Of a DNA stretch of 40,007 bases, positions 116-37,803 are shown in pieces. The stretch comes from Chthoniobacterales bacterium (lineage in GTDB: Bacteria > Verrucomicrobiota > Verrucomicrobiia > Chthoniobacterales > UBA10450): the NCBI GenBank assembly GCA_013815325.1, contig JACDGM010000036.1, forward strand, positions 1-40,007, given 5' to 3'. Each line of letters begins with the position of its first letter. The stretch's first letter is position 1. Position numbers and translations under genes: made by a program. The notes below the pieces were generated by a model. The model saw only the letters and a program-made list of their open reading frames with translations, was not told where the DNA came from and did no database searches.

Positions 116-1216
116 ATGTCCGCCGCCAAAACCCGCGTCCTCCTCGGCATGAGCGGCGGCGTCGATTCCAGCGTCGCCGGGTATCTGCTGCGCGAAGAGT
201 GTTACGAGGTCGTCGGCGTGACGATGAAGGTATGGCCGCAGGACTGCATCTCGCGCGCCGAGGACAAATGCTGTGGCCCGCAGGCGGTGGCCGACGCCCG
301 CAACGTCGCGCATTCGTTAGGCATTCCCCATTACGTGGTTGACGAAGCAGATCAATTCGAGCGCCTCGTGATCGATTATTTTTCGAGCGAATACCGCGCC
401 GGCCGCACGCCCAATCCCTGCGTGATGTGCAACGAGAAGCTGAAATTCGGCAAGCTCTGGGAGAAGGCGGAGGCGCTCGGCTGCGCTTACATCGCGACCG
501 GCCATTACGCGATTATCGAGCAGCGCCGCGATCGCGCGGTCCTGCGCAAAGGCGCCGATGGGCACAAGGACCAATCCTATTTTCTCTTCAGCCTGCGCCA
601 GGAGCAGTTGCGCCGCGCCCTCACCCCGCTGGGCGCGATGTCGAAGCCGGCCATTCGCGAGATCGCGCGATCGTTAGGCTTGAAGGTGGCTGACAAAGTC
701 GACAGTCAGGAAATCTGTTTCGTGCCGGGGAATGATTACAAAGCTTTTCTCCGCTCACACCTTGCTGAGGACGAATTTCATCCAGGTGACATTTACGATC
801 TCGACGGCAATTTCGTCGCGACCCACCAAGGCATCGAGATGTTTACGATCGGGCAGCGCAAAGGCTTGCCCGGCGGTTCCGCCCAGCCGCGTTACGTCGT
901 GGATATCGATGCCGAAACCAATCGCGTGATTGTCGGCCGCGCGGAAGATTTGCTCACGGAAGAATTTGAGATCGAGCGCGTGAACTGGGCGGGCGATCTT
1001 TCGCCTAACGAATCCAACGAGGTGACGGTGAAGATCCGCTATGCGCATGCAGGGACGCGCGCGACGGTCACGCCGCTGCCCGGGCAGCGCGCCCGCGTGC
1101 AACTGCACGACCCGCAAAAAGCGGTGAGCCCCGGACAGGCCGCGGTCCTTTATGATGGCGACGTGGTCGCCGGCGGCGGCTGGATTTGCCGGCAAACCGC
1201 AGCCGTTCCGGCCTAA
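116..1216 (+). CDS. mnmA: tRNA-specific 2-thiouridylase MnmA
   Basis: MnmA thiolates U34 of Lys, Glu and Gln tRNAs in the cytoplasm, using ATP and sulfur relayed from a cysteine desulfurase. The 366-aa product is normal family length. Visible signatures are the PP-loop GMSGGVDSS near residues 11-19, the catalytic Cys in NPCVMCN (Cys102), the second Cys in EICFVPG (Cys201) and the C-terminal beta-barrel region with IGQRKGLPGG. The ATG at 116 puts the PP-loop at the usual distance from the N-terminus. Three copies of the window-wide octamer lie in the gene, encoding SLG twice and PNE once, and a fourth copy supplies the TAA stop. cutA starts 4 bp after this stop, so the two are probably cotranscribed. 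Confidence 0.97.
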   Translation: MSAAKTRVLLGMSGGVDSSVAGYLLREECYEVVGVTMKVWPQDCISRAEDKCCGPQAVADARNVAHSLGIPHYVVDEADQFERLVIDYFSSEYRAGRTPNPCVMCNEKLKFGKLWEKAEALGCAYIATGHYAIIEQRRDRAVLRKGADGHKDQSYFLFSLRQEQLRRALTPLGAMSKPAIREIARSLGLKVADKVDSQEICFVPGNDYKAFLRSHLAEDEFHPGDIYDLDGNFVATHQGIEMFTIGQRKGLPGGSAQPRYVVDIDAETNRVIVGRAEDLLTEEFEIERVNWAGDLSPNESNEVTVKIRYAHAGTRATVTPLPGQRARVQLHDPQKAVSPGQAAVLYDGDVVAGGGWICRQTAAVPA

Positions 1217-1219
1217 CGA
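1212..1219 (+). promoter_or_regulatory. Octamer copy forming the mnmA-cutA junction
   Basis: CCTAACGA here provides the TAA stop of mnmA (1214-1216) and all three bases of the spacer before the cutA ATG at 1220. The whole intercistronic junction is therefore made of the dispersed motif. A regulatory role is not shown. Confidence 0.6.
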
Positions 1220-1543
1220 ATGCCCGACGAAGTCCTGCTCGTTTTAAGCACCTTCCCCGATCGCGGCACGGCGCAGCGGATCGCGGAGGAGCTGGTCGTT
1301 GGCCGATTTGCGGCCTGTGCCAACGTCGCTTCGGCGGTCGATTCGTTTTACTGGTGGAAAGGCGAAATTGAAACAGCGAGCGAAGTGCTGGTGTATTTCA
1401 AGACAACTGCGAAAAGGTTCGACGCGTTCGAGGGCAAATTGCGCGAGCTGCATCCCTACCACGTGCCGGAGATTATCGCTCTACGCGTGAGCGATGGGTC
1501 GAGGGAATATTTGAGCTGGGTGGCGGACAACTGCCGCGCCTAG
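1220..1543 (+). CDS. cutA: CutA family divalent-cation tolerance protein
   Basis: The 107-aa product is a full-length CutA-like protein, a small trimeric cytoplasmic ferredoxin-fold protein linked to divalent metal tolerance, whose molecular role remains unsettled in most bacteria. Recognisable segments are the N-terminal LVLSTFPDRGTAQRIAEEL, the FAACANV strand, the SFYWWKGEIE turn with its paired Trp, the helix that follows FKTTAKRFDAFEGKL, and HPYHVPEIIAL. It starts at an ATG 4 bp after the mnmA stop, consistent with a two-gene operon. The sequence after the stop (1544-1647) shows no clear terminator. Confidence 0.94.
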   Translation: MPDEVLLVLSTFPDRGTAQRIAEELVVGRFAACANVASAVDSFYWWKGEIETASEVLVYFKTTAKRFDAFEGKLRELHPYHVPEIIALRVSDGSREYLSWVADNCRA

Positions 1544-1647
1544 CGACCAGGCACGATCGCGTGAGCGCAAATTAGACTCGCCGCGGCGCGGAGGTGATTG
1601 CGCCTGCAGGATTGCCGCGGCCCATGAGCCGATGATAAACTCTCGTT

Positions 1648-3039
1648 ATGTCCTTAATTTTCGAGACGATTCCAACTGAAGGTCTGGCCGAAATTTCTTA
1701 TCTGATTGGCGATGATGACGAGGGCACCGCAGCGGTTTTCGATCCGCGGCCCGACGTCGAGATTTACCTCCAGCTCGCACGCGCGAAGAACGTCGCGATC
1801 ACGCACGTTTTCGAAACCCATATCCACGCCGATCTCGTCAGCGGAGCGCGTGAGCTGAGCAGTCGCGTCGGCACGGCTAAAATTTTCGCGAGCCACGAAG
1901 CGGGCGCGAGCTACGGCTTCGCGACCGAAGCGGTTAAAGATGGGGATCAGTTCAAATTCGGATCGCTCGTGATCACGGCGCGGTACACGCCTGGCCACAC
2001 GCCCGAGCACGTTTCCTATGTTCTCGCGGAGGAGGATCATCCGGGATTGCCCTGGGGCGTGCTCAGCGGCGACTCGCTTTTCGTCGGCTCCGCCGGCCGC
2101 CCGGATTTGTTAGGCGAAAAGGAGACTGCGAAGTTGGCGGCGCTCCAGTTTAAGACTCTGCGCGAGTTTTTCCTCAAGTTACCCGACGGCGTCATCGTTT
2201 ATCCGACGCACGGGAGCGGCTCGCCCTGCGGCGCGGAAATCGGCGACCGCCTAACGAGCACGATCGGTTTCGAGCGCGCTTTCAATCCTTTCCTGCAGTT
2301 CGACGATGTCAAAGCTTTCACCCAGCACTGCATCAAAACCGCCCCGCCCATTCCGAAATATTATTCGCGGATGAAAACGGTGAACGCGGAGGGGCCGAAA
2401 ATCCTCCGCGGCCTGCCGCAGGTGCAGGCTCTGCCGCCGAAAGCATTCAAACAGGCGGTCGGAAAGAAGACAGCCCTTTTGATCGACACCCGCTCGATGT
2501 TTGCCTTTGGCGGCGCGCACATCGCCGGTGCCCTCAATCTCGGGGCGTCACCCACCCTCTCGATTTGGGCCGGATCACTGCTCGATCCCGAGACGCCGAT
2601 CCTGCTTGTCCTGGAGAATGACAGCGATGTGGAAGAAGTCGTTAGGCTATTTCTCCGCACCGGCTTCACAAATTTCGCTGGCTATCTCGTCGGGGGGATG
2701 AAGGCCTGGGACGTCGCCGGTTATCCTTTCGAGCAGGTGCCGCAGATTTCCGTGCATCAACTGCAATCGGCCAATGGGCAGATGCAGGTGCTCGATGTGC
2801 GGACCGATCGGGAATGGAAGGGCGGGCACGTGCCGGGCGCGCGGCACATCGTGGTCCCGCAGCTGCAGCAACGTGTCGCGGAGCTCGATCGCACAAAGCC
2901 GACGGCTGTTTATTGTGCGTCCGGCTATCGGGCGAGCATCGCGGTGAGCATTCTGAAGACCGCCGGTTTCGAGAATGTGAGCAATGTCCCGGGCAGCTGG
3001 CACGCCTGGAAAGAAGCCGGATTCCCGGTGGAGAAATAG
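1648..3039 (+). CDS. CstB-like persulfide dioxygenase with pseudorhodanese and rhodanese domains
   Basis: The 463-aa protein has three modules. Residues 1-250 are a metallo-beta-lactamase fold of the ETHE1/persulfide dioxygenase type, with THIHAD (His58, His60, Asp62), TPGHT (His117), GDSLFVGSAGRPDL (Asp142) and YPTHGSGSPCG (His188, Cys194). Around residues 265-365 is a rhodanese fold without a catalytic Cys. Residues 370-463 are an intact rhodanese with CASGYRAS (Cys423). This order matches Staphylococcus CstB, which oxidises persulfides to sulfite/thiosulfate using a PDO-domain Cys near the iron site; Cys194 is placed similarly. The usual HxHxDH ends in DL, which should not remove an iron ligand. 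The sulfite-oxidase-family gene downstream would take the sulfite onward. Product assignment is family knowledge; substrate is inferred. Confidence 0.9.
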   Translation: MSLIFETIPTEGLAEISYLIGDDDEGTAAVFDPRPDVEIYLQLARAKNVAITHVFETHIHADLVSGARELSSRVGTAKIFASHEAGASYGFATEAVKDGDQFKFGSLVITARYTPGHTPEHVSYVLAEEDHPGLPWGVLSGDSLFVGSAGRPDLLGEKETAKLAALQFKTLREFFLKLPDGVIVYPTHGSGSPCGAEIGDRLTSTIGFERAFNPFLQFDDVKAFTQHCIKTAPPIPKYYSRMKTVNAEGPKILRGLPQVQALPPKAFKQAVGKKTALLIDTRSMFAFGGAHIAGALNLGASPTLSIWAGSLLDPETPILLVLENDSDVEEVVRLFLRTGFTNFAGYLVGGMKAWDVAGYPFEQVPQISVHQLQSANGQMQVLDVRTDREWKGGHVPGARHIVVPQLQQRVAELDRTKPTAVYCASGYRASIAVSILKTAGFENVSNVPGSWHAWKEAGFPVEK

Positions 3040-3204: not shown

Positions 3205-4251
3205 ATGATCATTCGCGAAAAGGAACCGGCCAACCTCGAGATGCCGTTCGGTCTGCTCGACGGCTGGATCACGCCTAACGAACAATTTTACATTCGCTCG
3301 CACTTCCCCGTGCCCGAGGTGGATTTCAAAAGCTGGCGGTTAAAGATCGAAGGGGCGGTCGCTCAACCGGTCGAGTTCAGCTATAACGAATTGCGCGCGC
3401 TGCCGGCGAAGACGCTTCTTGCGACGCTGGAGTGCGCGGGCAACAGCCGCGTTTTTCTCGTGCCCAAAGTGAAGGGGACGCAATGGGAGCTCGGCGCCAT
3501 TGGCAACGCCGAGTGGACCGGGGTGTCGTTAGGTGAGCTTTTGCGCAAAGCGGGCACGAAGGAAAGCGCGCTCGCAGTGGTGCTCGAAGGTGCGGACAAC
3601 GGCGCGATTGCGGAGCCGCCGCGGCCCACCGGCAAAGTGCATTTCGCGCGCAGCGTGCCGCTGGGCAAAGCGATGGACGACGTCCTGCTCGCGTTCCAGA
3701 TGAACGGCCAACCATTGCCCGCGTCGCACGGGTTTCCGCTGCGCGCAATCGTGCCCGGATGGTACGGAGTAGCGTCAGTCAAATGGCTCCAGCGCATCAT
3801 CGTTGTTGAGCGTCCGTTTAATGGTTACTACGAGACGGTAGACTATGCGTTCTGGGAAGGCGGCGCTGCGGGATCGAGGCTCGTCCCGATCACGGAGATG
3901 CAGGTGAAGGCAGTCATCGCGCGTCCCGGCAGCAATGAAGCGATCGCGGCCGGCGAGACATACCGTGTCAGCGGCGCCGCCTGGACGGGCGGCGCGGACG
4001 TTGTGAGAGTCGAGTTGAGCACGGATGGAGGCGGATCATGGCAAAGCGCGTCGTTAGGCGAGGAGGCGGCGCCGCACTGCTGGCGTTTGTGGGAATTCGA
4101 TTGGCAGACACCCGCGACGCCCGGCCGCTGCACGTTGCTGGCACGAGCGACCGATTCGCGCGGCCGCATCCAGCCTAACGAACGCGACCCTGACCGCGGC
4201 ACTTACATGATCAATCACTGTCTGCCAATCGAGGTTGAGATCGGAAGATAG
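3205..4251 (+). CDS. Sulfite oxidase-family molybdopterin oxidoreductase
   Basis: The 348-aa product has the two domains of the sulfite oxidase family. Residues 1-215 form the molybdopterin-binding fold, with Cys77 in LECAGNSR as the expected molybdenum ligand, HGFPLRAIVPGWYG near residue 175, and ASVKWL. Residues 225-345 form the Mo-co dimerisation Ig-like domain (VSGAAWTGGADVVRVELSTDGG). There is no Tat or Sec signal at the N-terminus and no heme domain, so it looks cytoplasmic as encoded. Family members oxidise sulfite to sulfate. The neighbouring persulfide dioxygenase makes that substrate plausible, although YedY-like methionine-sulfoxide reductases share the fold. Four dispersed octamers lie inside, coding PNE, SLG, SLG and PNE. 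Confidence 0.88.
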   Translation: MIIREKEPANLEMPFGLLDGWITPNEQFYIRSHFPVPEVDFKSWRLKIEGAVAQPVEFSYNELRALPAKTLLATLECAGNSRVFLVPKVKGTQWELGAIGNAEWTGVSLGELLRKAGTKESALAVVLEGADNGAIAEPPRPTGKVHFARSVPLGKAMDDVLLAFQMNGQPLPASHGFPLRAIVPGWYGVASVKWLQRIIVVERPFNGYYETVDYAFWEGGAAGSRLVPITEMQVKAVIARPGSNEAIAAGETYRVSGAAWTGGADVVRVELSTDGGGSWQSASLGEEAAPHCWRLWEFDWQTPATPGRCTLLARATDSRGRIQPNERDPDRGTYMINHCLPIEVEIGR

Positions 4252-4252
4252 G

Positions 4253-4345: not shown

Positions 4346-4386
4346 TCCGCCTGCGACTGCGAGCGCGAATCCGACTGACGGATTCG

Positions 4387-4950
4387 TTAGGCGATTGTCG
4401 CCGGGTCAAGGTGTGCCCAGTCGATCGCGACCCGCTGCCGCCGCGCAAAACGGTCGTGAAAGAAAAGCTCCTTATGCCGGCAACCGTGCTCGTGCACCAG
4501 CCGGGTCACCTTCACGTCGAAGCAGCAATACTCCGCCACCTCGAGAAAATGGCCTTCCCGCCACCACTTGATCGCGTCGATGCTCACGCTCGTTTTGTCC
4601 ACGCCTAACGTCGCCTGCGCGATCGCGTCGAGCCCGAGCCGGTGCCCGAGCTTCGTTTCCATGTCGAGCATGAGATCGACCGTCGGCAGCTCGTGCGCGA
4701 GATCGAGCACGGTGTAACCCATCAAAACGTGATAATCGAAATTGATGACGTTATATCCGACGACAAGATCGGCGCGCCGCAGGCGCTCAATCAAATCGTG
4801 AACGCGCGTTTCTTGAAAAATTTCGTAACGGCCGGTGCGCGTGCTGTAGATCACGCCGATCGACATTTGCATATTACCCTTGCGATCCCAGCCGCCGGCG
4901 TCGTTCGCGGTGCGCTGCGTTTCAAGATCGAAGTAAAGTATGTCGCGCAT
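4387..4950 (-). CDS. RNase H-fold 3'-5' exonuclease-like protein
   Basis: The 187-aa protein shows the DEDD exonuclease pattern: YFDLETQR near residues 6-12 (Asp, Glu), GYNVINFDYHVL near residues 65-76, and EYCCFDVKVTRLVH near 138-151, giving the Tyr-x3-Asp signature. It resembles the YprB/RNase_H_2 group of predicted ribonuclease H-like exonucleases. No helicase domain is attached. The ATG at 4950 lies right after a heptanucleotide tandem array, so its upstream region is repetitive. The TAA stop is supplied by the dispersed octamer at 4384-4391. It is the last gene of a minus-strand run with the secreted protein and the GH57 enzyme. The specific substrate is unknown. Confidence 0.8.
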   Translation of the reverse strand: MRDILYFDLETQRTANDAGGWDRKGNMQMSIGVIYSTRTGRYEIFQETRVHDLIERLRRADLVVGYNVINFDYHVLMGYTVLDLAHELPTVDLMLDMETKLGHRLGLDAIAQATLGVDKTSVSIDAIKWWREGHFLEVAEYCCFDVKVTRLVHEHGCRHKELFFHDRFARRQRVAIDWAHLDPATIA

Positions 4951-5031: not shown

Positions 5032-6282
5032 CTATTTCAACTCGAAATCGCCGCAATCGAAAGCCATCATTTCTTCGAGGTGGGTGACGCGAAATTGCTC
5101 GACGACCGCACCGTCGTCCTGGAAGACATCGACTGTGTTTTCCGCCTGGCGCGCGATGAGCGCGCGGGAAAGATTGTGCGTTTCGCTGATGGTGCGCAGC
5201 GGCAGGCCGTCCGTCGTTTCCAAATAGCTGCCTTCTGCGTCGAAGCCGATCGCGAGAACAATTTTCCCCGGCTGATCCCGCTCGAGCGGATTGGGCCGCA
5301 GCTTTTGCATGATCGTCGCGGGAGCGGCCCGTGAATCGTTAGGCGCAGCCACCGGCCGGCTGTTCTCGATCGCGAAGTTCTTGTGCGCCACGATCTCTTT
5401 CGCGAAATCGATCTTCCAGTCCGAAACGGCTTGACCTTTTTCCGGGACGGCGGCGTTGGCGAGAAGAGTGAGACTGCGGACACGCTGCACAGCCGGTGAC
5501 TCTTCGAGCAGATATATCCGATCTTCGTTAGGCGAGGCCGCGATGTCGGTCGGTTGGGGATCTTCGGTGGGGACCGAAAGCGTGCGCAAAACCGGCGGCC
5601 CGGGCTGGCCCGGCGCGGAAAGTTGCACGATCTCGACTTGGGACGCGCCTTTGTTGAGACGGCTGATCACCCAAAGCGTGCCAGTTTTTCCTCTCGTAAA
5701 AGCTATCGGATCGATCCGCGCCTCCGCAAACTTAGCCCCATCGGGCGGTTCAAATGGTTCCGGCGCTACCCGGTCACTCGGACGCAGTTTTCCGGTGGCG
5801 GGTTCGAAGAGAAATTGCGCGCTCCTGCCCCTGGGCATCGTCGTCTCCAGGCACAACGAGCCATCGCTCGCCGCGATCCGCGAAATGTGCGCGAGGTGGG
5901 GTGAATCTTCGTCCGTCACCCAATCGTTGAAGAAGGAGTTGACCCCTTCGACTTTAAGGCCGCCGACGAGATAACCCCGGGCTCGATATCTATTGGGGGG
6001 GAGGGGCCGTCCAGCATCGTCGTTGCCGTCCCACGTTGTTTCGAGCGCATCGTGGCCGGCCGTGAAGTCGGAAACGCCATCTTCGCGATGCAAGACGCGC
6101 ACGAGCTTCCCGTCCGTATTGTAGATGCCGAGGCTGATCGTGCCATCGAGCGGCGGCGGGACGAAATGCAGCCTAACGACGCGAGGGGTTGGTGTCGGAG
6201 GGTTCGGAGTCGGCGCAGGGGTTTCCTGTCCGTGCGCGAGGGCAAGCGCGATCACGAGCAAAGGGAGAAGAAGAACGCGCAT
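5032..6282 (-). CDS. Secreted protein with FlgD-like Ig domain, function unknown
   Basis: The 416-aa product begins with a signal peptide (MRVLLLPLLVIALALAHG) and a Pro/Thr-rich linker at residues 20-33. Residues 35-110 resemble a FlgD Ig-like module, with GISLGIYNTDGKLVRVL-type strand order and the typical TTWDGNDDAGRPLPPNRY turn. The rest looks like irregular beta-propeller or NHL-like sequence (TRGKTGTLWVISRLN, DIAASPNEDRIYLLEES) with no catalytic motif I recognise. It is probably exported to the periplasm or surface. The start codon is 11 bp from the stop of the GH57 gene, so both are likely one operon. Octamers encode PND, PNE and VR. No function is assigned. Confidence 0.8.
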   Translation of the reverse strand: MRVLLLPLLVIALALAHGQETPAPTPNPPTPTPRVVRLHFVPPPLDGTISLGIYNTDGKLVRVLHREDGVSDFTAGHDALETTWDGNDDAGRPLPPNRYRARGYLVGGLKVEGVNSFFNDWVTDEDSPHLAHISRIAASDGSLCLETTMPRGRSAQFLFEPATGKLRPSDRVAPEPFEPPDGAKFAEARIDPIAFTRGKTGTLWVISRLNKGASQVEIVQLSAPGQPGPPVLRTLSVPTEDPQPTDIAASPNEDRIYLLEESPAVQRVRSLTLLANAAVPEKGQAVSDWKIDFAKEIVAHKNFAIENSRPVAAPNDSRAAPATIMQKLRPNPLERDQPGKIVLAIGFDAEGSYLETTDGLPLRTISETHNLSRALIARQAENTVDVFQDDGAVVEQFRVTHLEEMMAFDCGDFELK

Positions 6283-6293: not shown

Positions 6294-7877
6294 CTAGAGA
6301 TAATAGCGCCAGTTGAGGTCGGGAAAAATCAAAGCGCGCTCCTCACACTCTTTCAGTAAATTTTGATCGATGCGAGCGGCGCAAAGTTGGTCGGCGAGGC
6401 GGTTGAAGCGAAGGAGGTGATCGCGGGTGCGGGCCGCAGCGTAGTCGGGCGCGGAGCGCGTCTTGATGAGGAAGGCCCAGTCGCTCGACTGCGCGAGAAG
6501 CAGTTCGCGCGCGGCTTGTCGAAGCGCGCGCTCGGTGAGGGGATCGCTGCTGTCGCGATGGGCGCGCGCGATTTCCGTCATGCGCCGGGTGGCGGCATGC
6601 AGGAGCGGATAAATCCAGGCGTTGCTCTCGTCGAGCCAGACACCGCTGAAGCCATTCTCGCCCCAGCTCGAAGGATTTGGCCTAACGATCTGCTGCGACG
6701 GATGGGCTGTGAGAAATTCGCTCGGCGTGGTGAGCTGGAAGTCCTCAGACTGCGCGGCGAGGCGCAGGAACGTTTCGAGAAAACGCGGACCTTCAAACCA
6801 CCAATGACCGAAAAGTTCGGCATCGAACGGGCTCACGACAAGCGCGTCGAAATCCGCGCTCGCGAGCTCCTGAAAGCGCGCTCCCCGCTTCTCGAAAAAA
6901 TCCTGCGCGTGCTCATCCGCCGCCGCCTGCGCCCAGACCGGATCGTAGAATTCCTTCTCTTCCGTGCGGCCGCTGACGCGATGATATTTGAGACCGCTGA
7001 ATTTGCGCAGGCCCGCCGGCCTAACGAATGGCCGTAACTCCTCCTCCGACCGGTCGTAGCCGATGTCGCGATAAAAGTCGCGGTAAACCGGATCACCGGG
7101 ATAACCGGACTCGGCGCTCCAAACTGCATGGCTCGATTCGCGATCGCGCGCGAAAGCCGCCGGGCCCGCCGGCGTATAACAGGGCGCGAAAAGAGCAAAG
7201 CGCGGCTGTGGCCGGGCGAACATCAGGCCGCGTGCGTCGAGGACAAACCAGCGGATATTTGCTTCCTGTAAAATCGCATCGAGGCCGGCGCTGTAGCCGC
7301 ATTCCGGCAGCCAGAATCCGGTCGGTTCACGTCCAAAATTTTCGCGATAACTGTCGCAACCGATGCGAACCTGCGCCCGTTGCGCCTCGGGGAAGTCCTG
7401 AAGCAACGGGAGAAATGGATGTGTCGCCGCGCTCGCCATGATTTCGAGACAGTTGTGTTCCTGCAACGCGCGAAATGCCCTAACGACGTCGCGTGAGAGT
7501 GTTTCCTCGAAAAAAGCCCGCGCTTCCGTGAAGAAGCGCCCGTAGAACTGCGCCAGCTCGAAAAGTTGCGGCTGATGGCGGTTGCGCTCGATCTCTTGCC
7601 GGGCGAGTCCGATTAGGCGTTCGAGATGGCGCAGGTATCTTTGCTGGAGTAGATCGTCGCGCAGCATCGCGCAGAGCGTCGGGGTGAGCGACATCGTGAG
7701 CTTGCAGCGCACCCCTTCGTCCGCCAGCCGGCGCAGCATGCGGAGGAGCGGGAGGTAAGTTTCGGTGATGGCTTCGAAAAGCCAGTCTTCCTCGAGGAAA
7801 TCCTCGTGCTCCGGGTGCCTGACGAATGGCAGGTGAGCGTGGAGGATGAGGGCAAGATGACCAGGCGGAGCGCTCAC
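6294..7877 (-). CDS. GH57 family 1,4-alpha-glucan branching enzyme-like protein
   Basis: The 527-aa protein is a GH57 glycoside hydrolase of the branching-enzyme (DUF1957) type. It starts with the metal/substrate motif ILHAHLPFVRHPE. The likely nucleophile is Glu192 in GFWLPECGY and the acid/base is Asp352 in SPFDAELFGHWWFEGP; the C-terminal helical domain runs from about 420 and includes SSDWAFLI. GH57 branching enzymes introduce alpha-1,6 branches into glycogen-like glucans in the cytoplasm. No glycogen synthase or GlgP neighbour is present in the window. The gene leads a minus-strand operon with the secreted protein and exonuclease, and family A repeat DNA lies upstream. Four octamers inside it code for VR on the sense strand. 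Confidence 0.9.
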   Translation of the reverse strand: MSAPPGHLALILHAHLPFVRHPEHEDFLEEDWLFEAITETYLPLLRMLRRLADEGVRCKLTMSLTPTLCAMLRDDLLQQRYLRHLERLIGLARQEIERNRHQPQLFELAQFYGRFFTEARAFFEETLSRDVVRAFRALQEHNCLEIMASAATHPFLPLLQDFPEAQRAQVRIGCDSYRENFGREPTGFWLPECGYSAGLDAILQEANIRWFVLDARGLMFARPQPRFALFAPCYTPAGPAAFARDRESSHAVWSAESGYPGDPVYRDFYRDIGYDRSEEELRPFVRPAGLRKFSGLKYHRVSGRTEEKEFYDPVWAQAAADEHAQDFFEKRGARFQELASADFDALVVSPFDAELFGHWWFEGPRFLETFLRLAAQSEDFQLTTPSEFLTAHPSQQIVRPNPSSWGENGFSGVWLDESNAWIYPLLHAATRRMTEIARAHRDSSDPLTERALRQAARELLLAQSSDWAFLIKTRSAPDYAAARTRDHLLRFNRLADQLCAARIDQNLLKECEERALIFPDLNWRYYL

Positions 7878-10296: not shown

Positions 10297-10496
10297 AGAA
10301 GATCCTTGAGCGGCTGAACGGATTAGGCCGCGGTGGTGCAGACAATCGAAGTCGCTCGGACGAACGGAAGGTAGCTGCGGCTAACGAGCCTTCAACTAGG
10401 TTTTCGCAGGCTGCGCTGGCCGCTCCCTCCTCGGCGGCCGCCTGTAAGCGCTTTGCTCTGCGGAGCGCGAGTCTGCGGGTATTTTGCCTAACGACG
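10297..10496. other. 200-bp intergenic stretch between ndk and prmA
   Basis: No ORF is convincing here. It holds a GC-rich palindrome-rich segment around 10400-10460 (GGCGGCCGCC), one near-match and one exact dispersed octamer, and the hairpin listed at 10475-10507. It probably contains the ndk promoter and the prmA terminator. Confidence 0.5.
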
Positions 10497-27275: not shown

Positions 27276-27315
27276 GGTCTGTTGTGCAGGACACCGATTT
27301 CGATACGTCTGAGCG

Positions 27316-27323
27316 CCTAACGA
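27316..27323 (+). promoter_or_regulatory. Octamer copy abutting the folE start codon
   Basis: The last A of CCTAACGA is the A of the folE ATG at 27323, and there is no Shine-Dalgarno-like run in its place. Whether this affects initiation is unknown. Confidence 0.55.
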
Positions 27324-27904: not shown

Positions 27905-29142
27905 TCGACCCCGCGTCGATGTTGCTGACGGTCAGCAAGCGGCTTGAGTTCTCCGCTTCGCGGCGCCTCTTCTCCGCTGCCTGGACGGAGGCGGAAAATC
28001 GCGCCGCATTCGGAGCGGAAACCGCGGCGCGTTACGGCACCGGTCGCAATTACGTCGCGTTTTTCGTGCTCAGCGGCGCAGTCGATCCGGCGAATGGAAT
28101 GCTCGTGAACATCAGCGAGATCAAGCGACGCGTGGAGGAAGTCTTGCACGCAAACTTCGATCACAAATTCCTCAACGAAGATCATCCCGCTTTTCGCGAG
28201 CAGCCGCCGACTGCGGAAAATATCGCGCGCCAGCTTTTCACCGAAGTCACGCCGCTCTTTGGCGATCTTGGGGCGGGACTGGTCGCCTGTCATTTGCAGG
28301 AAGCGCCGGAGCGCAGCGCGACTTGTTACGGCGACGGGATCGCGGAAGGACATCATTGGTTCGAATTTTCCGCGGCGCGCCAGACGATGTCGCCGCACCT
28401 CAGCGCGCAGGAGAACGACGAGCTTTTCGGCGTGGCCGCTTCGTCGCATGGTCATGGGCATCATTACCGCGCCCGCCTCACGTTCCGCGACGCGTCGCCG
28501 GAGCTTGCGCAGCCGCTCATTGCGCAACGCGACCTCGCTCGAGTCGTGCAAACGTTGCGCGCCGAATTCGACCATAAGAATCTCAATCGCGAAGTTCCCG
28601 GCCTAACGAATCGTCCAATAACGACGGAGAGTCTGGCGCAATACCTCTACGAACGAGTCGCAGCCGAGTTGCCCATCAATCGGGTGCGCCTGCACGAACG
28701 GGAGGATTTTTTTGCCGAATACTGGACGGGCGACAAGTATTTCCTCGGCCTGCAACGCGCCTTCAGCGCAGCCCACCGGCTGCACGCGGGCGAGTTGTCC
28801 GACGCGACGAATCTCGCCCTCTACGGCAAGTGCAACAATTTTCTCGGTCACGGTCATCGCTATCTCACCGAAGCGATGATCAGTGGCGAATATGACGCGC
28901 GCAGCGGGACGCTCTACAACTTCGTGCACCTGCTCGACGGGGTGGAGGCGGCGCTGCGACCCTGGCGGGATAAACATCTCGATCGCGAGACGGATGAATT
29001 TCGAACAAAGCCCTCGACGGGCGAAAATATCGTGCGCGCTCTTTGGCCGAAGTTCGCCGAGCAGCTCAACCACCAACTCGTGCGCCTCCGGCTTTGGGAG
29101 ACCCCGAACAACCGCTTCACCTTGCGCCTAACGAGCCCATAG
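27901..29142 (+). CDS. Triple fusion of 6-pyruvoyltetrahydropterin synthase (PTPS/QueD) domains
   Basis: A 413-aa protein from GTG 27901, or 407 aa from ATG 27919, made of three PTPS-fold units. Domain 1 (about 8-130) has FSASRRL, GTGRNY and FDHKFLN: all three zinc His are lost, but the catalytic Asp-His pair is kept. Domain 2 (about 150-265) has FSAARQT, GHGHHY and FDHKNLN: two zinc His remain and Cys is absent. Domain 3 (about 280-413) has FSAAHRL and [12 protein letters not shown], a full zinc site with CxxxxxHGH as in PTPS-II biopterin-type enzymes, but the Asp-His pair reads Arg-Asp. All keep the pterin-anchoring Glu (TAEN, TTES, TGEN). Single PTPS enzymes are oligomers with shared active sites, so the chain may act as a covalent trimer. 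Coupling to folE supports a pterin role. Confidence 0.88.
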
Positions 29143-29490: not shown

Positions 29491-31677
29491 TTACCGCCCT
29501 CGCCCGCGGCGAGGCCGTTGTGATGATCCGACTAGCCCGTCGGTCACAATCGCGAAGTCGGCCTGCTGCTTGAAGATATCGATTCTCGCCACTACGACGC
29601 GGAGCGCTTCACCGACAGTTAGCGTGCGTTTGGATTGGCGGCCGATGAGCCGGCGGCGAGCACCATCGAAGACGTAGAAGTCGTCAGCCAGCGAGGAGAT
29701 GTGGATCAGCCCGGTGAGGAGAACGTCGGGCAGTTCTATAAGGAGGCCGTAATTGCGCACTTCAATTACAACCGCGCGAAATACTTGGGGATTATCCGTC
29801 GCCACTTGCGCTTGCAAAAATTCCAGCTTCTTCATCTTGACCGACTCGTTTTCCGCGTCGGCGGCCACGCGTTCGGTGGTCGAGATGTGTTCCGCGATAC
29901 CGGTCAGCTCGGCCACACTCCCGCGCGCGCCGCGGCGGCTGTTGCGAGCGGCGAGTGTGCGGTGGACGACGAGATCGGCGTAACGGCGAATCGGGCTGGT
30001 GAAGTGCGCGTAATTCGTTTTTGCCAGGCCGAAATGGCCCAGCGGCTGCGTCGTATAGCGGGCGCGCTTGAGACTTTTGAGCAGGCCGATCTTAAGTGCC
30101 TGCTCTTCCGGTTTTCCACGCAAAGACGCAAGCAAACGTTGCAGCTCGGCGCGATTCGTAAGGTCGCCCGCCTGGAAACCGTAGCTCTGAACCATTTCTC
30201 GATATTCCGTGAGCTTATCCGGATCAGGATTTTCGTGGACGCGATAGATCGTCGGAATGAGGCGGTTCTTCAATTCCGCGGCGACAGCTTCGTTGGCAGC
30301 GAGCATGAATTCTTCGACCAGTTGATGCGATTCGTCGTTCTCGATCCGTTCGAGCCGGAGCGGCCGGCCGCTTTTGGGATCGAGCACGACTTTGACTTCC
30401 GGGAAATCGAGATCGAGCGAGCCCTGCGCAAAACGACGGCGGCGCAGGATCGCGGCGAGCGACCAGGCGGTGTGCAAACGTTCGCCCAGCTTATCGTTAG
30501 GCGGATTTTGCAGGATGGCGTAGGCTTCTTTGTAAGTGAGCCGGTGGGCGCTGCGGATCAGCGTCCGCGCGAAACGCGCGCTCCGCGGCGCGGCGTTTTT
30601 CGCAAAGCGAATGAAGGCGGAATGCGTCAGCCTAACGACGTTGGGGTTTAAGCTGCAAACGCCGTTGCTCAGCCGCTCGGGCAGCATCGGGACGACGCGG
30701 TCGGCCAGGTAAACGCTGTTCCCCCGCTGCAACGCCTCGCGATCGAGCGCGCTCCCGGGCACGACATAAGCCGAAACGTCGGCGATGTGAACACCGAGTT
30801 CCCATTCGCCGCCGGGCAGCTTCTCGACGTGGATCGCGTCGTCGAAATCGCGCGCGTCATCGGGGTCGATCGTGACGATGAAACGATCGCGCAGGTCCTC
30901 ACGTTCGCCGTAACCATCGGGATCGACCGTCTCCGGGACGCGTTCCGCTTCAGCCAGGACGTCCACGGGAAACTCCGTGGGCAAATGATGCTTGCGGATG
31001 ATCGAAAGCATGTCGACGCCCGGATCGCCCGCGCGCCCGAGGAACTCGACGATCTCGCCCTCGGGGTTGACGTGGCGTGATTCCCACGGCTCCAGCCTAA
31101 CGACGACTTTGTCACCCGGAGAGGGAGCCCGGTGCGCCTCCGGGAGGGGTTGCGGTTTGACGTAAACATTGTGCACGATGCGCGGATCATCCGGCACGAC
31201 GTAAGAAAAGTTCGGCGTCTGCTGTAAGGTGCCGACGATGGTCGCATGGGCGCGCTCGAGGATGCGAATGACGCGACCTTCCGGATGAGCAGTGCCGCTC
31301 CGGGCGCGAGTGTAGGCCGCGTCGCGTGTGATGCGCGCGACGACGCTGTCGCCGTTCATCGCTGTCCCGGTGTTTTCCGCCGCGATGAAGACGTCGCCCT
31401 GGTCGGAATTTTCGCGCACCAGAAAGCCGAAGCCCGCTTGGTGGACTTGCAGTTTGCCGGTGACGAGATCGGCCTCTTCGGGAAGGACGTAGCGGTTTTT
31501 GCGGATGCGCGCGATGTCGCCGGCGCGCTCGAGCTGCTGCAACGCTTCCTTCAAATGCCCGCGCCCGTCGCTCTTGATTCCGAGCGCACGTCCCAGCTCG
31601 ATTTTGTCGAGCGGCCGGTATTTTGGCCCGCGCATGACGGCGAGAATCTTTTGTTTGGTGTCGCTTTCTTTTTTCAT
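29491..31677 (-). CDS. rnr: Ribonuclease R
   Basis: RNase R is a processive 3'-5' exoribonuclease acting on structured RNA. The product is 728 aa from Met 31677 (744 aa from 31725). Order: N-terminal winged-helix-like region (TKQKILAVMRGPKYRPLDKIELGRALGI), cold-shock domains (KLQVHQAGFGFLVRE, DVFIAAENTGTAMNGD), and the RNB domain with the metal-binding aspartates in TIDPDDARDFDDAIH, IADVSAYV, and PERLSNGVCSLNP. An S1 domain (FRAVVIEVRNYGLLIELPDVLLTGLIHISSL) precedes a short Arg/Gly-rich tail. Three octamers occur on its span. folP is divergent on the other side. Confidence 0.95.
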   Translation of the reverse strand: MKKESDTKQKILAVMRGPKYRPLDKIELGRALGIKSDGRGHLKEALQQLERAGDIARIRKNRYVLPEEADLVTGKLQVHQAGFGFLVRENSDQGDVFIAAENTGTAMNGDSVVARITRDAAYTRARSGTAHPEGRVIRILERAHATIVGTLQQTPNFSYVVPDDPRIVHNVYVKPQPLPEAHRAPSPGDKVVVRLEPWESRHVNPEGEIVEFLGRAGDPGVDMLSIIRKHHLPTEFPVDVLAEAERVPETVDPDGYGEREDLRDRFIVTIDPDDARDFDDAIHVEKLPGGEWELGVHIADVSAYVVPGSALDREALQRGNSVYLADRVVPMLPERLSNGVCSLNPNVVRLTHSAFIRFAKNAAPRSARFARTLIRSAHRLTYKEAYAILQNPPNDKLGERLHTAWSLAAILRRRRFAQGSLDLDFPEVKVVLDPKSGRPLRLERIENDESHQLVEEFMLAANEAVAAELKNRLIPTIYRVHENPDPDKLTEYREMVQSYGFQAGDLTNRAELQRLLASLRGKPEEQALKIGLLKSLKRARYTTQPLGHFGLAKTNYAHFTSPIRRYADLVVHRTLAARNSRRGARGSVAELTGIAEHISTTERVAADAENESVKMKKLEFLQAQVATDNPQVFRAVVIEVRNYGLLIELPDVLLTGLIHISSLADDFYVFDGARRRLIGRQSKRTLTVGEALRVVVARIDIFKQQADFAIVTDGLVGSSQRPRRGRGR

Positions 31678-31782: not shown

Positions 31783-32628
31783 ATGACTTCGGCCAGCTGG
31801 AAAGTTGATGGAAACGCCATCGACCTAACGAGTCGCGGCATGATCATGGGAGTGCTCAATGTCACCCCTGATTCATTTTCCGATGGCGGTGAATTTTTCG
31901 CGACGGAGGCTGCGGTCCGGCACGGAATCGCGATGACGCGAAGCGGCGCCGACATCATCGACATCGGCGGCGAATCGACTCGGCCGGGCGCCCTCTCCGT
32001 TTCGCCTAACGAGGAACTCGACCGCGTCCTACGGGTTGTGCAAGAACTCGCCAGGTCCGCCGAAGTCCATCTCTCGATTGATACCTCGAAAGCGGCGGTG
32101 GCGCGGGCGGCACTCGACGCCGGCGCCGTCATCATCAACGACGTGACAGGCGGGCGGGGCGATCCGGAGATGTTCGCGCTCGCTGCGGAGAAGCGCGCGG
32201 CGCTCATCATTATGCACATGCAAGGAACGCCGCAGACGATGCAGCTGCATCCGGTCTATCACGATGTCGTCGCCGAGGTGGCTGATTTTTTTCGACAGCA
32301 ATTCGAGCTGGCGGTACGGTTCGGGATCGATCCGCTCTGCCTCGCTTTTGATCCCGGAATCGGTTTCGGCAAAACCGTCGCGCAAAACCTCGAGCTGCTC
32401 GTCAATCTCGAACGCCTCCGGGTGGATGATCGCCCGCTCGTCGTGGGAGTTTCGCGGAAATCCTTTCTCGGCAAAATCGCCGACGCGCCGTTTGCGAAAA
32501 CGAGCGCGACGGTGGCGCTGACTTCGCTCCTGCGCGAGCGCGGCGCGCAGATCTTGCGGGTCCACGACGTGGCCGAAAATGCGAACGCGCTCCGCACCAC
32601 GGAAGCTTTTCTTGCTGCCGGCCGATGA
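31783..32628 (+). CDS. folP: Dihydropteroate synthase
   Basis: FolP joins dihydropterin pyrophosphate and p-aminobenzoate in folate synthesis. From the ATG at 31783 the protein has 281 aa. All family blocks are visible: MGVLNVTPDSFSDGG, IIDIGGESTRPGA, SIDTSKAAVARAAL, IINDVTGG, FDPGIGFGKT, GVSRKSFLG and a C-terminal RVHDV. The frame is open upstream to 31246, but that part is antisense to rnr; TTG at 31780 is an alternative. Its stop overlaps the cdaA start (ATGA), so folP and cdaA are translationally coupled. Octamers encode DLTS near the start and SPNE. Confidence 0.96.
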   Translation: MTSASWKVDGNAIDLTSRGMIMGVLNVTPDSFSDGGEFFATEAAVRHGIAMTRSGADIIDIGGESTRPGALSVSPNEELDRVLRVVQELARSAEVHLSIDTSKAAVARAALDAGAVIINDVTGGRGDPEMFALAAEKRAALIIMHMQGTPQTMQLHPVYHDVVAEVADFFRQQFELAVRFGIDPLCLAFDPGIGFGKTVAQNLELLVNLERLRVDDRPLVVGVSRKSFLGKIADAPFAKTSATVALTSLLRERGAQILRVHDVAENANALRTTEAFLAAGR

Positions 32629-36501: not shown

Positions 36502-36588
36502 GACAGGATTAACGGGATTTACAGGATTAGGAATGAGCAAAGGCAAAGGCTCTTAGTCTTCAATCCTGAAAATCCTGTTAATCCTGTC
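36502..36588. repeat. Inverted repeat of AGGATT/AATCCT units between convergent genes
   Basis: GACAGGATTAACGGGATTT and ACAGGATTAG on the left face AATCCTGAAAATCCTGTTAA and TCCTGTC on the right, enclosing about 30 bp. The right arm reaches into the stop codon of the VOC gene (36587-36589). It can fold into a long AU-containing hairpin from either strand and likely terminates both apt and the VOC gene. Confidence 0.8.
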
Positions 36589-36979
36589 AGCGTTTCCCGT
36601 TCTGCACAGAAAGCTCCCAGCGGTAGCCATCAAGGTCACGGAACCAAATACCCATGTGCTTCGAGCCGGGGGCTTCCGGTCCGATCTCGTCACCCCGGTC
36701 TTCCACTTTGACCTTTAGCTTTTTCAGATGGGCCAGCGCTTTGCGCAGGGCTGCCATGTTCGTTAGGTGAAACGACATGTGCCCGAGAGTCTTCGGTCGC
36801 GGCTTTCCCTTGTGCAGCGCGATGGTCACGTTCCGGTTGCCGACCGCGATTCCTTTGTCGAACTCGAACTGCTTTTCAAAGCCCAAGGCGCTCTGAAACC
36901 ATTTCGCGCTCTTTTTCGGCGAGCGCACGGAGAGTCCGAAGTGGCCGACGGTGCCGACGGTGAATTGAGTTTTCATCAT
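36587..36979 (-). CDS. VOC superfamily (glyoxalase-like) protein
   Basis: A 130-aa single-domain protein with two beta-alpha-beta3 modules: GTVGHFGLSVRSPKKSAKWFQSALGF in the first half and KTLGHMSFHLTNMAALRKALAHLKK to the C-terminal HMGIWFRDLDGYRWELSV in the second. Candidate metal ligands are His in GHFGL, His in GHMSFH and Glu in WELSV, as in glyoxalase I and fosfomycin-resistance proteins. Substrate is unknown. Two adjacent Met codons (36979, 36976) could start it. Its stop codon overlaps the intergenic inverted repeat, and one octamer codes LTN. Confidence 0.85.
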   Translation of the reverse strand: MMKTQFTVGTVGHFGLSVRSPKKSAKWFQSALGFEKQFEFDKGIAVGNRNVTIALHKGKPRPKTLGHMSFHLTNMAALRKALAHLKKLKVKVEDRGDEIGPEAPGSKHMGIWFRDLDGYRWELSVQNGKR

Positions 36980-37083
36980 CTATTCTACGGTTCTTGGTGG
37001 GCGGGCGGTTGGAGATAAAATATTAAAGGCAGGCGGTGAGGCCGGATGAGATAGTATATGCGGCATGTCCCCTATCAGGCACG

Positions 37084-37803
37084 ATGAGCAGCGACTTTAA
37101 GGAACTGGATTTCCGCGAGACGCCGCTGGGCCAACTGAGCCTGCGCCGGCGCCGTGTGCTGTCGTTAGGCGGCATGGAGGTTTATGAAGTGCAACTGGGC
37201 GACGCCTTCCTGATGTCGAGCTTGTTTCATGAGGTCGAGGTGGCACTTGCTCACCTCGGGCTAGGCGAATTGGAAGGAGCGTCATGGGACGTGGTCGTGG
37301 GGGGGCTGGGGCTTGGCTACACCGCGGTGGCGGCTCTCGAGCATCACGACGTAGCATCGCTTCTTATCGTCGACGCCTTGCAGCCGGTGATCGAATGGCA
37401 TCAAAACGCGCTCGTGCCGCTCGGCGAGAAGCTGACGGGCGATCCCCGCTGCCGGCTATTGCATGCCGACTTTTTTGCGCGCGCGAAATCAAGGGACGGG
37501 TTCGATCCGGAGCAGCCGGGCAGACTGTTTCACGCGGTGCTCTTGGATATCGATCATTCACCGCGCAGCCTCCTGCATCCGAGTAATGCCGCTTTCTATG
37601 AAGCGGAAGGTCTGCGCGCGCTCTCGGCACACTTACACCCTGGCGGCGTTTTTGCGCTCTGGTCTGATGACCCGCCGGATGATGATTTTCTCGACGTGCT
37701 CGGCAGCGTTTTCGCCACCGTCCGCGCTCACATCGTCAGCTTTCCCAATCCGCTCCTGGAAGGGACTTCTGAAAGCACTGTCTATGTCGCGTGCAAGGCG
37801 TGA
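37084..37803 (+). CDS. Spermidine synthase-like SAM-binding protein
   Basis: From ATG 37084 (MSSDFKELDFRETPLGQLSLRR) the protein has 239 aa. It resembles the methyltransferase-fold part of spermidine synthases: the nucleotide-binding region VVGGLGLGYTAVAALEHHDVASLLIVDALQPVIEWHQNAL, then CRLLHADFFAR and the acidic AVLLDIDHSPRSLLHPSNAAFY, which replaces the usual D-D catalytic stretch. Whether it makes polyamines is doubtful; many such homologues are uncharacterised SAM-dependent enzymes. An upstream in-frame ATG at 37036 is less likely. It contains the last exact octamer of the window, coding SLG. Confidence 0.78.
   Translation: MSSDFKELDFRETPLGQLSLRRRRVLSLGGMEVYEVQLGDAFLMSSLFHEVEVALAHLGLGELEGASWDVVVGGLGLGYTAVAALEHHDVASLLIVDALQPVIEWHQNALVPLGEKLTGDPRCRLLHADFFARAKSRDGFDPEQPGRLFHAVLLDIDHSPRSLLHPSNAAFYEAEGLRALSAHLHPGGVFALWSDDPPDDDFLDVLGSVFATVRAHIVSFPNPLLEGTSESTVYVACKA

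What the first reader, a model, noticed from the sequence alone, without database searches (positions are those of the whole stretch)
314..37169. A 9-bp non-palindromic word, GCCTAACGA, peppers the whole window
By hand I count 53 exact CCTAACGA/TCGTTAGG octamers (34 on plus, 19 on minus) in 40 kb. Independent base frequencies predict about one. In 42 of 53 the word extends to GCCTAACGA, and about fourteen single-mismatch relatives were also noted. It lies in genes of unrelated function and in intergenic DNA. The density (about 1.3 per kb) resembles the DNA uptake sequences of Neisseria and Pasteurellaceae, but the sites are mainly single and intragenic. Candidate roles are a DNA uptake signal, a Chi-like recombination site, a KOPS/SBS-type segregation site, or a modification or structuring signal. 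I do not recall a published description for this word in any phylum.
Basis: partly seen in the sequence, partly recalled or inferred. Interest (0 to 1): 0.93.

Follow-up and report, generated by a model that had tools for sequence, protein, structure and literature searches.

The report
Soil bacteria's DNA self-recognition word
The nine-letter DNA word GCCTAACGA is repeated about 2,750 times through the genome of a bacterium of the order Chthoniobacterales and stays in place between related species while the DNA around it changes, so it likely serves as a tag by which these bacteria would recognise and take up DNA of their own kind.

Summary
In detail: 42 GCCTAACGA in 40 kb (about 0.2 expected) and 2,754 in the 4.15-Mb genome against 66 for the reversed word. 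It is not local: the genus, the genus of G005 and G014 carry 1,410-4,605 copies, other genera of the family 60-587, other families of the order 1-30. Where own DNA aligns with congener G003 (about 78% identity), 60 of 68 words are exact against 11% of flanking same-frame 9-mers. The word has a rigid core and tolerant edges, occurs on both strands and in all stop-free frames, and shows no replication polarity. A second, unrelated word, AAGATCGACA, fills sister genera and is also kept in place; one genome (Centralia_MAG_126) carries both, interspersed. On an RNase R tree the family most simply went from A, through A+B, to B. PilT-type and ComEC genes are present; no ComP-family receptor passed its cut-off. 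Best reading: a DNA-uptake (self-recognition) signal in Verrucomicrobiota that works like neisserial DUS or Pasteurellaceae USS without shown homology, with a word replacement caught midway. Uptake itself is untested.

The parts
314..322 (-). word A (GCCTAACGA on minus)
   Evidence: exact match
671..679 (-). word A
   Evidence: exact match
1003..1011 (+). word A
   Evidence: exact match
1211..1219 (+). word A
   Evidence: exact match
2249..2257 (+). word A
   Evidence: exact match
2639..2647 (-). word A
   Evidence: exact match
3273..3281 (+). word A
   Evidence: exact match
4051..4059 (-). word A
   Evidence: exact match
4173..4181 (+). word A
   Evidence: exact match
4384..4392 (-). word A
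   Evidence: exact match
5336..5344 (-). word A
   Evidence: exact match
5525..5533 (-). word A
   Evidence: exact match
6171..6179 (+). word A
   Evidence: exact match
6680..6688 (+). word A
   Evidence: exact match
7019..7027 (+). word A
   Evidence: exact match
10146..10154 (+). word A
   Evidence: exact match
10486..10494 (+). word A
   Evidence: exact match
12432..12440 (+). word A
   Evidence: exact match
12918..12926 (+). word A
   Evidence: exact match
13134..13142 (+). word A
   Evidence: exact match
16029..16037 (-). word A
   Evidence: exact match
16662..16670 (-). word A
   Evidence: exact match
17279..17287 (-). word A
   Evidence: exact match
17362..17370 (+). word A
   Evidence: exact match
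17723..17731 (+). word A
   Evidence: exact match
17966..17974 (-). word A
   Evidence: exact match
18092..18100 (-). word A
   Evidence: exact match
19095..19103 (+). word A, inside the TamB-type ORF 18679-22587
   Evidence: exact match
19516..19524 (-). word A, inside the TamB-type ORF
   Evidence: exact match
20244..20252 (+). word A, inside the TamB-type ORF
   Evidence: exact match
20444..20452 (-). word A, inside the TamB-type ORF
   Evidence: exact match
22623..22631 (+). word A, inside the Omp85-type ORF 22589-24751
   Evidence: exact match
22827..22835 (+). word A, inside the Omp85-type ORF
   Evidence: exact match
26683..26691 (+). word A
   Evidence: exact match
27315..27323 (+). 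word A
   Evidence: exact match
28601..28609 (+). word A
   Evidence: exact match
29126..29134 (+). word A
   Evidence: exact match
30494..30502 (-). word A, inside the RNase R-type ORF 29491-31725 (RNB domain)
   Evidence: exact match
30630..30638 (+). word A, inside the RNase R-type ORF
   Evidence: exact match
31095..31103 (+). word A, inside the RNase R-type ORF
   Evidence: exact match
32004..32012 (+). word A, inside the Pterin_bind ORF 31246-32628
   Evidence: exact match
37162..37170 (-). word A, last in the window
   Evidence: exact match

Best explanation
GCCTAACGA (word A) is a genome-wide word that is held in place between species, and it likely acts as a DNA-uptake signal that would let these Chthoniobacterales bind and import DNA of their own kind by natural transformation. 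Shown: abundance, family restriction, rigid core with tolerant edges, occurrence on both strands and in all stop-free frames, retention at orthologous places far above the surrounding DNA, a second unrelated word (AAGATCGACA, word B) abundant and retained in sister genera, one genome with both, and the presence of pilus-retraction (PilT-type) and ComEC genes. Inferred: a surface DNA receptor, probably a minor pilin of a type IV pilus, binds the word on double-stranded DNA; pilus retraction pulls the fragment in; ComEC passes one strand into the cytoplasm; recombination into the chromosome then spreads and keeps the word at each place because word-bearing alleles are taken up more often. Inferred from the tree: word A is ancestral; the receptor gained or switched to B on the branch leading to Centralia_MAG_126 and its sister genera, after which A decayed.
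For: Abundance 2,754 against 66; 1,410-4,605 copies in the genus, G005 and G014; 1-30 in the 21 genomes of other families of the order, each below its reversed control. Retention of word A: own to G003 60 of 68 against 176 of 1,632 flanking same-frame 9-mers; own to G014 13 of 43 against 35 of 1,051; own to G004 24 of 44, G001 17 of 36, G002 9 of 28, G005 5 of 9, flanks 5-11%. Word B: kept in G014 from G016 9 of 10, g6 7 of 9, COA_6_3 6 of 8, AV18 5 of 6, flanks 4-12% (all sets are in the full report). Substitution profile: changes at positions 4, 6 and 7 near or below chance (0-4 copies each), positions 1, 8 and 9 tolerant. Own stop-free frames used about evenly: 58, 53, 52, 45. Bilingual genome: 70 of 72 5-kb bins of one 360-kb stretch hold both words. 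ComEC 53 of 58 and PilT family 56 of 58, 52 over cut-off, both in the own genome, both missing from the two 0.9-Mb genomes of the order. Close word-A pairs under 100 bp are scarcer than random in own (10 against 19), G014 (4 against 20) and G004 (2 against 4), but not in G003 (15 against 14.5).
Against: No uptake experiment exists here. No receptor identified: ComP_DUS (PF16732) reaches its cut-off in 0 of 58 genomes, and the weak hits that could be read are GspG-like pseudopilins (6 of 10 fetched loci; that name is recalled). ComEA (TIGR00426) reaches its cut-off in 0 of 58 and has no match in own; PilQ (TIGR02515) is below cut-off in 58 of 58. ComEC had no hit in two word-B users (G033, G035, 80% and 78% complete). 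ComEC and PilT are also present in sister families that lack the words, so machinery does not predict the word. Inverted close pairs, as in known uptake-word terminators, are rare. Words A and B are unrelated, whereas known dialects within a family resemble each other. In weak-A genera word A of the genus is retained no better than flanks (own to g7 3 of 33, p 0.34; own to g3 1 of 5). Word-B retention from G014 to others is modest (9 of 55, 7 of 25, 6 of 19, 4 of 20, 5 of 17, 3 of 20, 1 of 25, 0 of 7, 0 of 2). Word B is unevenly spread over reading frames.
Confidence: 0.72

Rival explanations
1. A Chi-like recombination signal read by an end-resecting nuclease-helicase, kept genome-wide because it protects and repairs the chromosome.
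For: Chi words are also short, over-represented and kept in the core genome (PMC8022716, passages read).
Against: Chi motifs are polarised on the leading strand (same passages). Here a 360-kb stretch of G014 holds word A 116 plus and 122 minus and word B 309 plus and 275 minus; 20-kb stretches show strand chi-square 23.1 on 16 degrees of freedom in own, 5.1 on 8 in G003, 1.5 on 6 in G004, 25.6 on 26 for word B in G014, and a mild local excess of 42.9 on 26 for word A in G014. Two unrelated words in one genome would need two readers (inference).
Confidence: 0.08
2. A binding site of an unknown nucleoid-organising or chromosome-segregation protein that needs an evenly spread word.
For: Near-random spread with scarce close pairs in three of four genomes, site-by-site retention.
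Against: No polarity or regional clustering, so not KOPS or matS type; wholesale replacement by an unrelated word would require a chromosome-wide binding protein to change specificity. Known nucleoid sites are usually degenerate or clustered (recalled).
Confidence: 0.1
3. A methylation-linked iterated word comparable to cyanobacterial HIP1, spread by biased mismatch repair rather than by DNA uptake.
For: HIP1 is likewise genome-wide with lineage variation (PMC4390886, passages). Word B contains GATC.
Against: Word A is asymmetric and contains no palindromic tetramer (sequence); HIP1 is a palindrome built on GATC/CGATCG sites (same passages). No methylase search was made.
Confidence: 0.05
4. 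Scattered integron attC sites or an inserted mobile repeat.
For: GCCTAAC/GTTAGGC are attC core-like (recalled), and in G038 (another family) the word does form an attC-like array. Gaps are commoner near unshared words (17 of 39 G003 words) than at random places (12%), and gaps spanning half a word, though few (1 of 39, 1 of 24, 3 of 52, 2 of 86, 3 of 76, 3 of 36), are above the random 0.4-1.3%.
Against: In 370 kb of own DNA the attC order GCCTAAC..GTTAGGC at 50-150 bp occurs 6 times against 12 in the opposite order, while 12.7 kb of G038 holds 7. Most unshared words are not spanned by a gap. 209 of 266 held own sites lie inside predicted genes.
Confidence: 0.02
5. Codon or peptide bias: the word encodes a favoured peptide.
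For: 209 of 266 held own sites are inside genes. Word B in G014 prefers some frames (180 and 69, 61 in sense; 233, 107 and 9 in antisense), and in G004 word A has 25 against 6 in its two sense frames.
Against: For word A in own both strands and all four stop-free frames are used about evenly (58, 53, 52, 45) and 39 of 266 sites are intergenic; anagrams of the word average 2.7 against 312. Word B is denser between genes than in them (2.31 against 1.48 per kb).
Confidence: 0.01

Closest known systems
Neisseriaceae DNA uptake sequence (DUS) dialects
   Same: Thousands of copies of a short non-palindromic word, a rigid core, lineage-specific variants that follow the species tree, one genome with two dialects (Simonsiella muelleri, kingDUS 2,257 and simDUS 2,292; PMC3630211, passages read).
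   Different: Different phylum; words A and B share no core (neisserial dialects share CTG, and the two in Simonsiella differ by one base); no ComP-family protein over cut-off; inverted close pairs rare; uptake untested.
Pasteurellaceae uptake signal sequence (USS)
   Same: Hundreds to thousands of copies of a 9-10-bp word, many inside genes, no general orientation bias in the genome, a different motif in a subclade (PMC2346458, part 1 of 3 of the text read).
   Different: Words unrelated; the two USS motifs resemble each other while A and B do not; the proposed USS receptor is itself only predicted (PMC12616744, passages).
Chi sites
   Same: Short over-represented word kept in the core genome.
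   Different: Chi is leading-strand polarised (PMC8022716, passages); these words are not.
Cyanobacterial HIP1
   Same: Genome-wide iterated word with lineage-specific variation.
   Different: HIP1 is a palindrome tied to GATC and CGATCG methylases (PMC4390886, passages); word A has no such site.

Membership tests
DUS/USS-type uptake word (functional kind) | Hundreds to thousands of copies genome-wide, far above chance, on both strands | tested here: met
   1,431 + 1,323 against 34 + 32 for the reversed word
DUS/USS-type uptake word (functional kind) | Non-palindromic word with an intolerant core and tolerant edges | tested here: met
   Single-substitution profile in G000, G003, G014
DUS/USS-type uptake word (functional kind) | Restricted to a lineage, with variants in sister lineages | tested here: met
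   but the second word is unrelated rather than a variant
DUS/USS-type uptake word (functional kind) | Words kept at orthologous places between species | tested here: met
   60 of 68 against 176 of 1,632; not above flanks in the weak-A genera g3 and g7
DUS/USS-type uptake word (functional kind) | Host has transformation machinery: pilus retraction ATPase and ComEC channel | tested here: met
   ComEC 53 of 58, PilT family 56 of 58, 52 over cut-off, both in the own genome
DUS/USS-type uptake word (functional kind) | ComEA and PilQ | tested here: inconclusive
   ComEA 28 of 58 at E 0.001, none over cut-off, none in own; PilQ 58 of 58 at E 0.001, none over cut-off
DUS/USS-type uptake word (functional kind) | Positional bias within genes (reported for Pasteurellaceae, PMC2346458) | not tested
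   not computed here
DUS/USS-type uptake word (functional kind) | Word-bearing DNA is taken up preferentially | not testable with these tools
   needs cells or purified receptor
Neisserial DUS proper | ComP (PF16732) receptor | tested here: not met
   0 of 58 over cut-off, 46 of 58 with weak matches at E up to 1; the 6 readable of 10 loci are GspG-like
Neisserial DUS proper | Shared CTG core | tested here: not met
   Words A and B contain no CTG or CAG (sequence); core as given in PMC3630211
Neisserial DUS proper | Inverted word pairs serving as terminators | tested here: not met
   Adjacent inverted pairs under 50 bp: own 3 of 247, G003 0 of 147, G004 0 of 70, G014 word A 0 of 315
Chi | Leading-strand polarity | tested here: not met
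   A 116/122, B 309/275 over 360 kb; contig fragments only, origin not mapped
KOPS | Strong orientation towards the terminus (recalled) | tested here: not met
HIP1 | Palindrome over a methylase site | tested here: not met
   Word A is asymmetric with no palindromic tetramer (sequence)
Integron attC | Paired inverted cores in fixed order and spacing (recalled) | tested here: not met
   6 in attC order against 12 opposite in 370 kb

The most novel reading that the evidence does not exclude
An independently evolved DNA self-recognition code in Verrucomicrobiota whose word was replaced outright: the family began with GCCTAACGA, passed through a bilingual state still alive in Centralia_MAG_126 (1,802 copies of A and 4,653 of B), and ended with the unrelated AAGATCGACA in its sister genera. 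To my knowledge this would be the first uptake language shift between unrelated words, in a lineage of bacteria related to Candidatus Udaeobacter.
Probability: 0.6. Interest if true: 0.92.

Novelty: new variant of a known kind. Interest (0 to 1): 0.82.

Why it matters
Uptake words are known to me from two proteobacterial families, Pasteurellaceae and Neisseriaceae (recalled; the abstract opening of PMC7811141 names these two). A third, in a different phylum, would show that sequence-selective DNA uptake evolved again, would imply frequent transformation in these bacteria, known here only as metagenome-assembled genomes, and would give a tag for making them genetically tractable.

Tried and rejected
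Integron attC: rejected in the own genome, although exact matches in one outgroup (G038) are an attC-like array. Codon bias as the cause of word A, insertion of a repeat as the main origin, MAG chimerism for the bilingual genome: rejected. Word-free gaps as mobile islands: the two largest own gaps hold subtilase-domain and RHS-repeat proteins, no phage family among the 8 proteins scanned there; not decisive. Receptor near pilT: a simple prepilin-motif scan of 10 loci (own, G003, G014, G009, G016; the other loci fetched were not scanned) flagged only ComEC itself. ComP family: nothing over cut-off; of 10 fetched loci, 6 gave a readable ORF in my script, all GspG-like, and 4 did not. ComEA and PilQ gave only sub-cut-off matches. 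Third words: none convincing in genera g3, g7, g8 (32-242 kb each) and other families of the order (20-60 kb each; G037, 7 kb, not scanned); genus g4 shows CTAACGAGA 12 against 0.3 in 80 kb, possibly a variant of word A. Literature, titles and abstract openings only: searches (1 paper; 7; 25 of 40 listed; 15 of 167; 0; 12 of 25; 8 of 30; 6; 3), 68 (10 of 5,981); none of those listed describes either word or an uptake word in Verrucomicrobiota. Limits: gene calls are from my own codon-usage ORF caller; retention uses blastn blocks of at least 300 bp, which favours conserved regions, and the flank control was taken at same-frame offsets in the same blocks; sites were treated as independent in the Fisher tests; the word-B comparisons reuse the same G014 sites against several relatives; the tree is of one gene.
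Full report
Observation. The window holds 53 CCTAACGA (34 plus, 19 minus) and 42 GCCTAACGA, against an expectation of about 0.2 under Markov orders 1-3 with the words masked, 0.89 under order 4 and 2.36 under order 5. The own assembly (4.15 Mb, 209 contigs) holds 1,431 + 1,323 copies against 34 + 32 of the word read backwards.

Where it occurs. In 58 genomes (the own genome and 57 relatives), the five of the genus hold 1,410-4,605 copies, G005 (another genus) 2,147 and G014 1,802; the other 30 genomes of the family hold 60-587, from about the level of the reversed control (G016: 60 against 79) to eleven times it (G024: 481 against 43); the 21 genomes of other families of the order hold 1-30, each below its reversed control. 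In 387 genomes of the phylum, counts outside the family are 0-29 except 75, 133 and 61 in three genomes of one genus and 59 in another (reversed controls 48, 66, 49, 31). Named records found with the window's RNase R place the family among Chthoniobacterales, together with MAGs named Candidatus Udaeobacter; NCBI lists that genus under Verrucomicrobiota, Spartobacteria, Chthoniobacterales. Matching coordinates between searches identify G004 as palsa_1392, G001 as LS_ISSM_2_bin.146, G002 as MGR_bin232, G014 as Centralia_MAG_126, G010 as palsa_1379, G009 as AV19, G012 as AV17 and, less tightly, G033 as COA_Bin_6_3. That they are mostly soil bacteria is inferred from record titles. The two loci titled Udaeobacter hold few words (12,967 bases: A 0, B 2; 22,289 bases: A 3, B 0).

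Anatomy of the word. In 310 kb of own DNA, single substitutions at positions 4, 6 and 7 occur 0-4 times each, near or below chance, while G1 to A or C (23, 25), C2 to A (21), G8 to A (32) and A9 to G or T (20, 18) are well above it: a rigid core with soft edges, as expected of a word read by a protein. The flanks add only a weak pyrimidine preference upstream. Of 266 held own sites 209 lie in predicted genes, 39 between genes and 18 on edges; the four stop-free frames of the two strands hold 58, 53, 52 and 45. In G004 one sense frame holds 25 and the other 6, and in G014 word A lies 162 times with and 115 times against the gene. Density within and between genes: own 0.79 and 0.60, G003 0.85 and 1.44, G004 0.57 and 0.52, G014 0.63 and 0.61 per kb. 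The word is therefore most simply read as DNA. Gaps between words are near random; pairs under 100 bp are scarcer than expected in own (10 against 19.1), G014 (4 against 19.9) and G004 (2 against 4.0) but not in G003 (15 against 14.5). No strand bias follows replication; a mild local strand excess exists for word A in G014 (chi-square 42.9 on 26).

Maintenance. Aligning held own DNA with held DNA of the congener G003 (77.6% identical in the smaller set), 60 of 68 own words are exact in G003, against 176 of 1,632 flanking 9-mers in the same frame (p about 8e-46). The reverse direction gives 60 of 99 against 255 of 2,356. Other relatives: G004 24 of 44, G001 17 of 36, G002 9 of 28, G005 5 of 9, with flanks at 5-11%. 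Against G014, across the family's deepest split and at 70% identity, 13 of 43 are kept against 35 of 1,051. In the weak-A genera there is no excess: own to g7 3 of 33, G003 to g7 2 of 26, G004 to g7 0 of 18, to g3 1 of 5, 0 of 6, 0 of 7. Unshared words lie more often near alignment gaps (G003 against own 17 of 39) than random places do (12%), and a gap spans half the word in 1 of 39, 1 of 24, 3 of 52, 2 of 86, 3 of 76 and 3 of 36 in the comparisons with any such case, above the random 0.4-1.3%: most words arise in place in loosely constrained DNA, a few by insertion or are lost by deletion.

A second word. A k-mer scan of relatives showed AAGATCGACA (usually followed by A or T) in sister genera. 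Counts over the same 58 genomes: 4,653 in G014; 996-1,509 in genus g6; 1,070 in G012; 147-1,016 in g14; 173-755 in g5; 760 in G016; 715 in G015; 22-85 in g4; 11-50 in the other genera of the family, 19-29 of them in the window's genus; 1-21 in the other families of the order; the reversed word gives 0-8. G014 carries both words. They are interspersed (70 of 72 5-kb bins of one 360-kb stretch hold both, r = 0.32), so the genome is not a mixture of two organisms. Word B is held in place too: of B words in other genomes, G014 keeps 9 of 10 (G016), 7 of 9 (g6: AV19, G027, G009), 6 of 8 (COA_6_3), 5 of 6 (AV18), 4 of 6 (AV17), 3 of 4 (COA_6_2), 1 of 3 (AV11), 0 of 2 (G015), 0 of 1 (g7), with flanks at 0-12%. 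In the other direction it is 9 of 55, 7 of 25, 6 of 19, 5 of 17, 4 of 20, 3 of 20, 1 of 25, 0 of 7, 0 of 45 (g7) and 0 of 2 (g5), flanks 2-9%, as if many G014 sites were young. Word A of G014 is not kept above flanks where the relative uses B: 0 of 26, 0 of 9, 0 of 7, 1 of 9, 0 of 1, 0 of 8, 2 of 14, 1 of 8, 0 of 2. Retention thus follows the resident word. Unlike word A, word B is uneven over reading frames and denser between genes (2.31 against 1.48 per kb).

History. On a tree of 46 RNase R proteins (quick method, SH-aLRT support; long branches among the outgroups), the window's genus and G005 form one side of the family's deepest split, with A at 427-1,071 per Mb; the g8, g3 and g7 clade has A at 75-178 per Mb; the g4 clade has little of either; G014 (A 621, B 1,604 per Mb) is sister to the remaining genera (support 87 for that join, 95 for the rest), of which the five with genome-wide counts have B at 76-621 per Mb and the Udaeobacter/AV side shows few words in its loci. 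The few words of weak-A genera that could be tested are often shared: g7 to own 3 of 3, to G003 2 of 2, to G004 0 of 1, to G014 4 of 7; g3 to own 1 of 1, to G004 0 of 1. The simplest reading is A ancestral, B gained before G014 split off, A then lost. This rests on one gene tree.

Machinery. ComEC (PF03772) is present in 53 of 58 genomes, including own; without a hit are the two 0.9-Mb genomes, G046 and the incomplete word-B users G033 and G035. The PilT family (TIGR01420) is present in 56 of 58 (52 over cut-off), including own; only the two 0.9-Mb genomes lack it. ComEA and PilQ gave only sub-cut-off matches. No ComP-family receptor was found over cut-off, and the readable weak hits look like GspG pseudopilins (name recalled). 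Sister families without the words also have ComEC and PilT, so machinery is necessary at most.

Interpretation. Abundance, strand balance, rigid core, family restriction, a changed word in sister lineages, site-by-site maintenance and uptake genes together match uptake words (PMC3630211 and PMC12616744, passages; PMC2346458, part 1 of 3). Chi is polarised (PMC8022716, passages) and HIP1 is a methylase-linked palindrome (PMC4390886, passages); neither fits. PMC5217627 (passages), a survey of spaced motifs, has no mention of Verrucomicrobia among the terms searched. It works like DUS and USS; it is not filed as a member of neisserial DUS, because ComP, the CTG core and the terminator pairs were tested and not met. 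What is new is the phylum, the two unrelated words in one family, and the bilingual genome: the nearest precedent seen, Simonsiella muelleri, carries two dialects that differ by one base. Shown: everything counted above. Inferred: the receptor, the uptake step, and the order of word replacement.

Noticed in passing
window 3067-3190, 4242-4350, 7884-7994: A dispersed, partly self-complementary element of about 110-125 bp with many further copies in the own genome and its congeners; these three copies do not contain the word.
   Followed up: no
G014 stretches (e.g. L052, L174, L182): Word B often stands in same-strand pairs 15 or 16 bp apart (33 + 27 of the AGATCGACA pairs within 40 bp, 14 at all other spacings), about one and a half helical turns; only 2 such pairs in the other word-B stretches held. 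Word A shows no such pairing.
   Followed up: partly
L076:9047-12702 (G038, another family): Six exact GCCTAACGA copies, 409-637 bp apart, each followed by GTTAGGC 95-147 bp on: an integron cassette (attC-like) array by its look, unrelated to the genome-wide word; no integrase was looked for.
   Followed up: partly
G239, G242, G251 and G428: Genomes elsewhere in the class with 75, 133, 61 and 59 copies of word A, 1.2 to 2.0 times the reversed control; not examined.
   Followed up: no
own contig C11 32,949-42,590 and C100 from 11,317 to at least 20,000: The longest word-free gaps of the held own DNA; they contain two large proteins with subtilase-domain matches and RHS-repeat proteins.
   Followed up: partly
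window: HIP1-like CGCGATCGC occurs 17 times and CGATCGCG 40 times; not tested against a Markov model.
   Followed up: no
own stretches; genera g4, g7 and AV MAGs: Other enriched words: AGTTGAGAG in own (19 against 1.2), CTAACGAGA in g4 (12 against 0.3) and GTCATCCCGA in g7 and AV MAGs, possibly parts of dispersed repeats or word variants.
   Followed up: no
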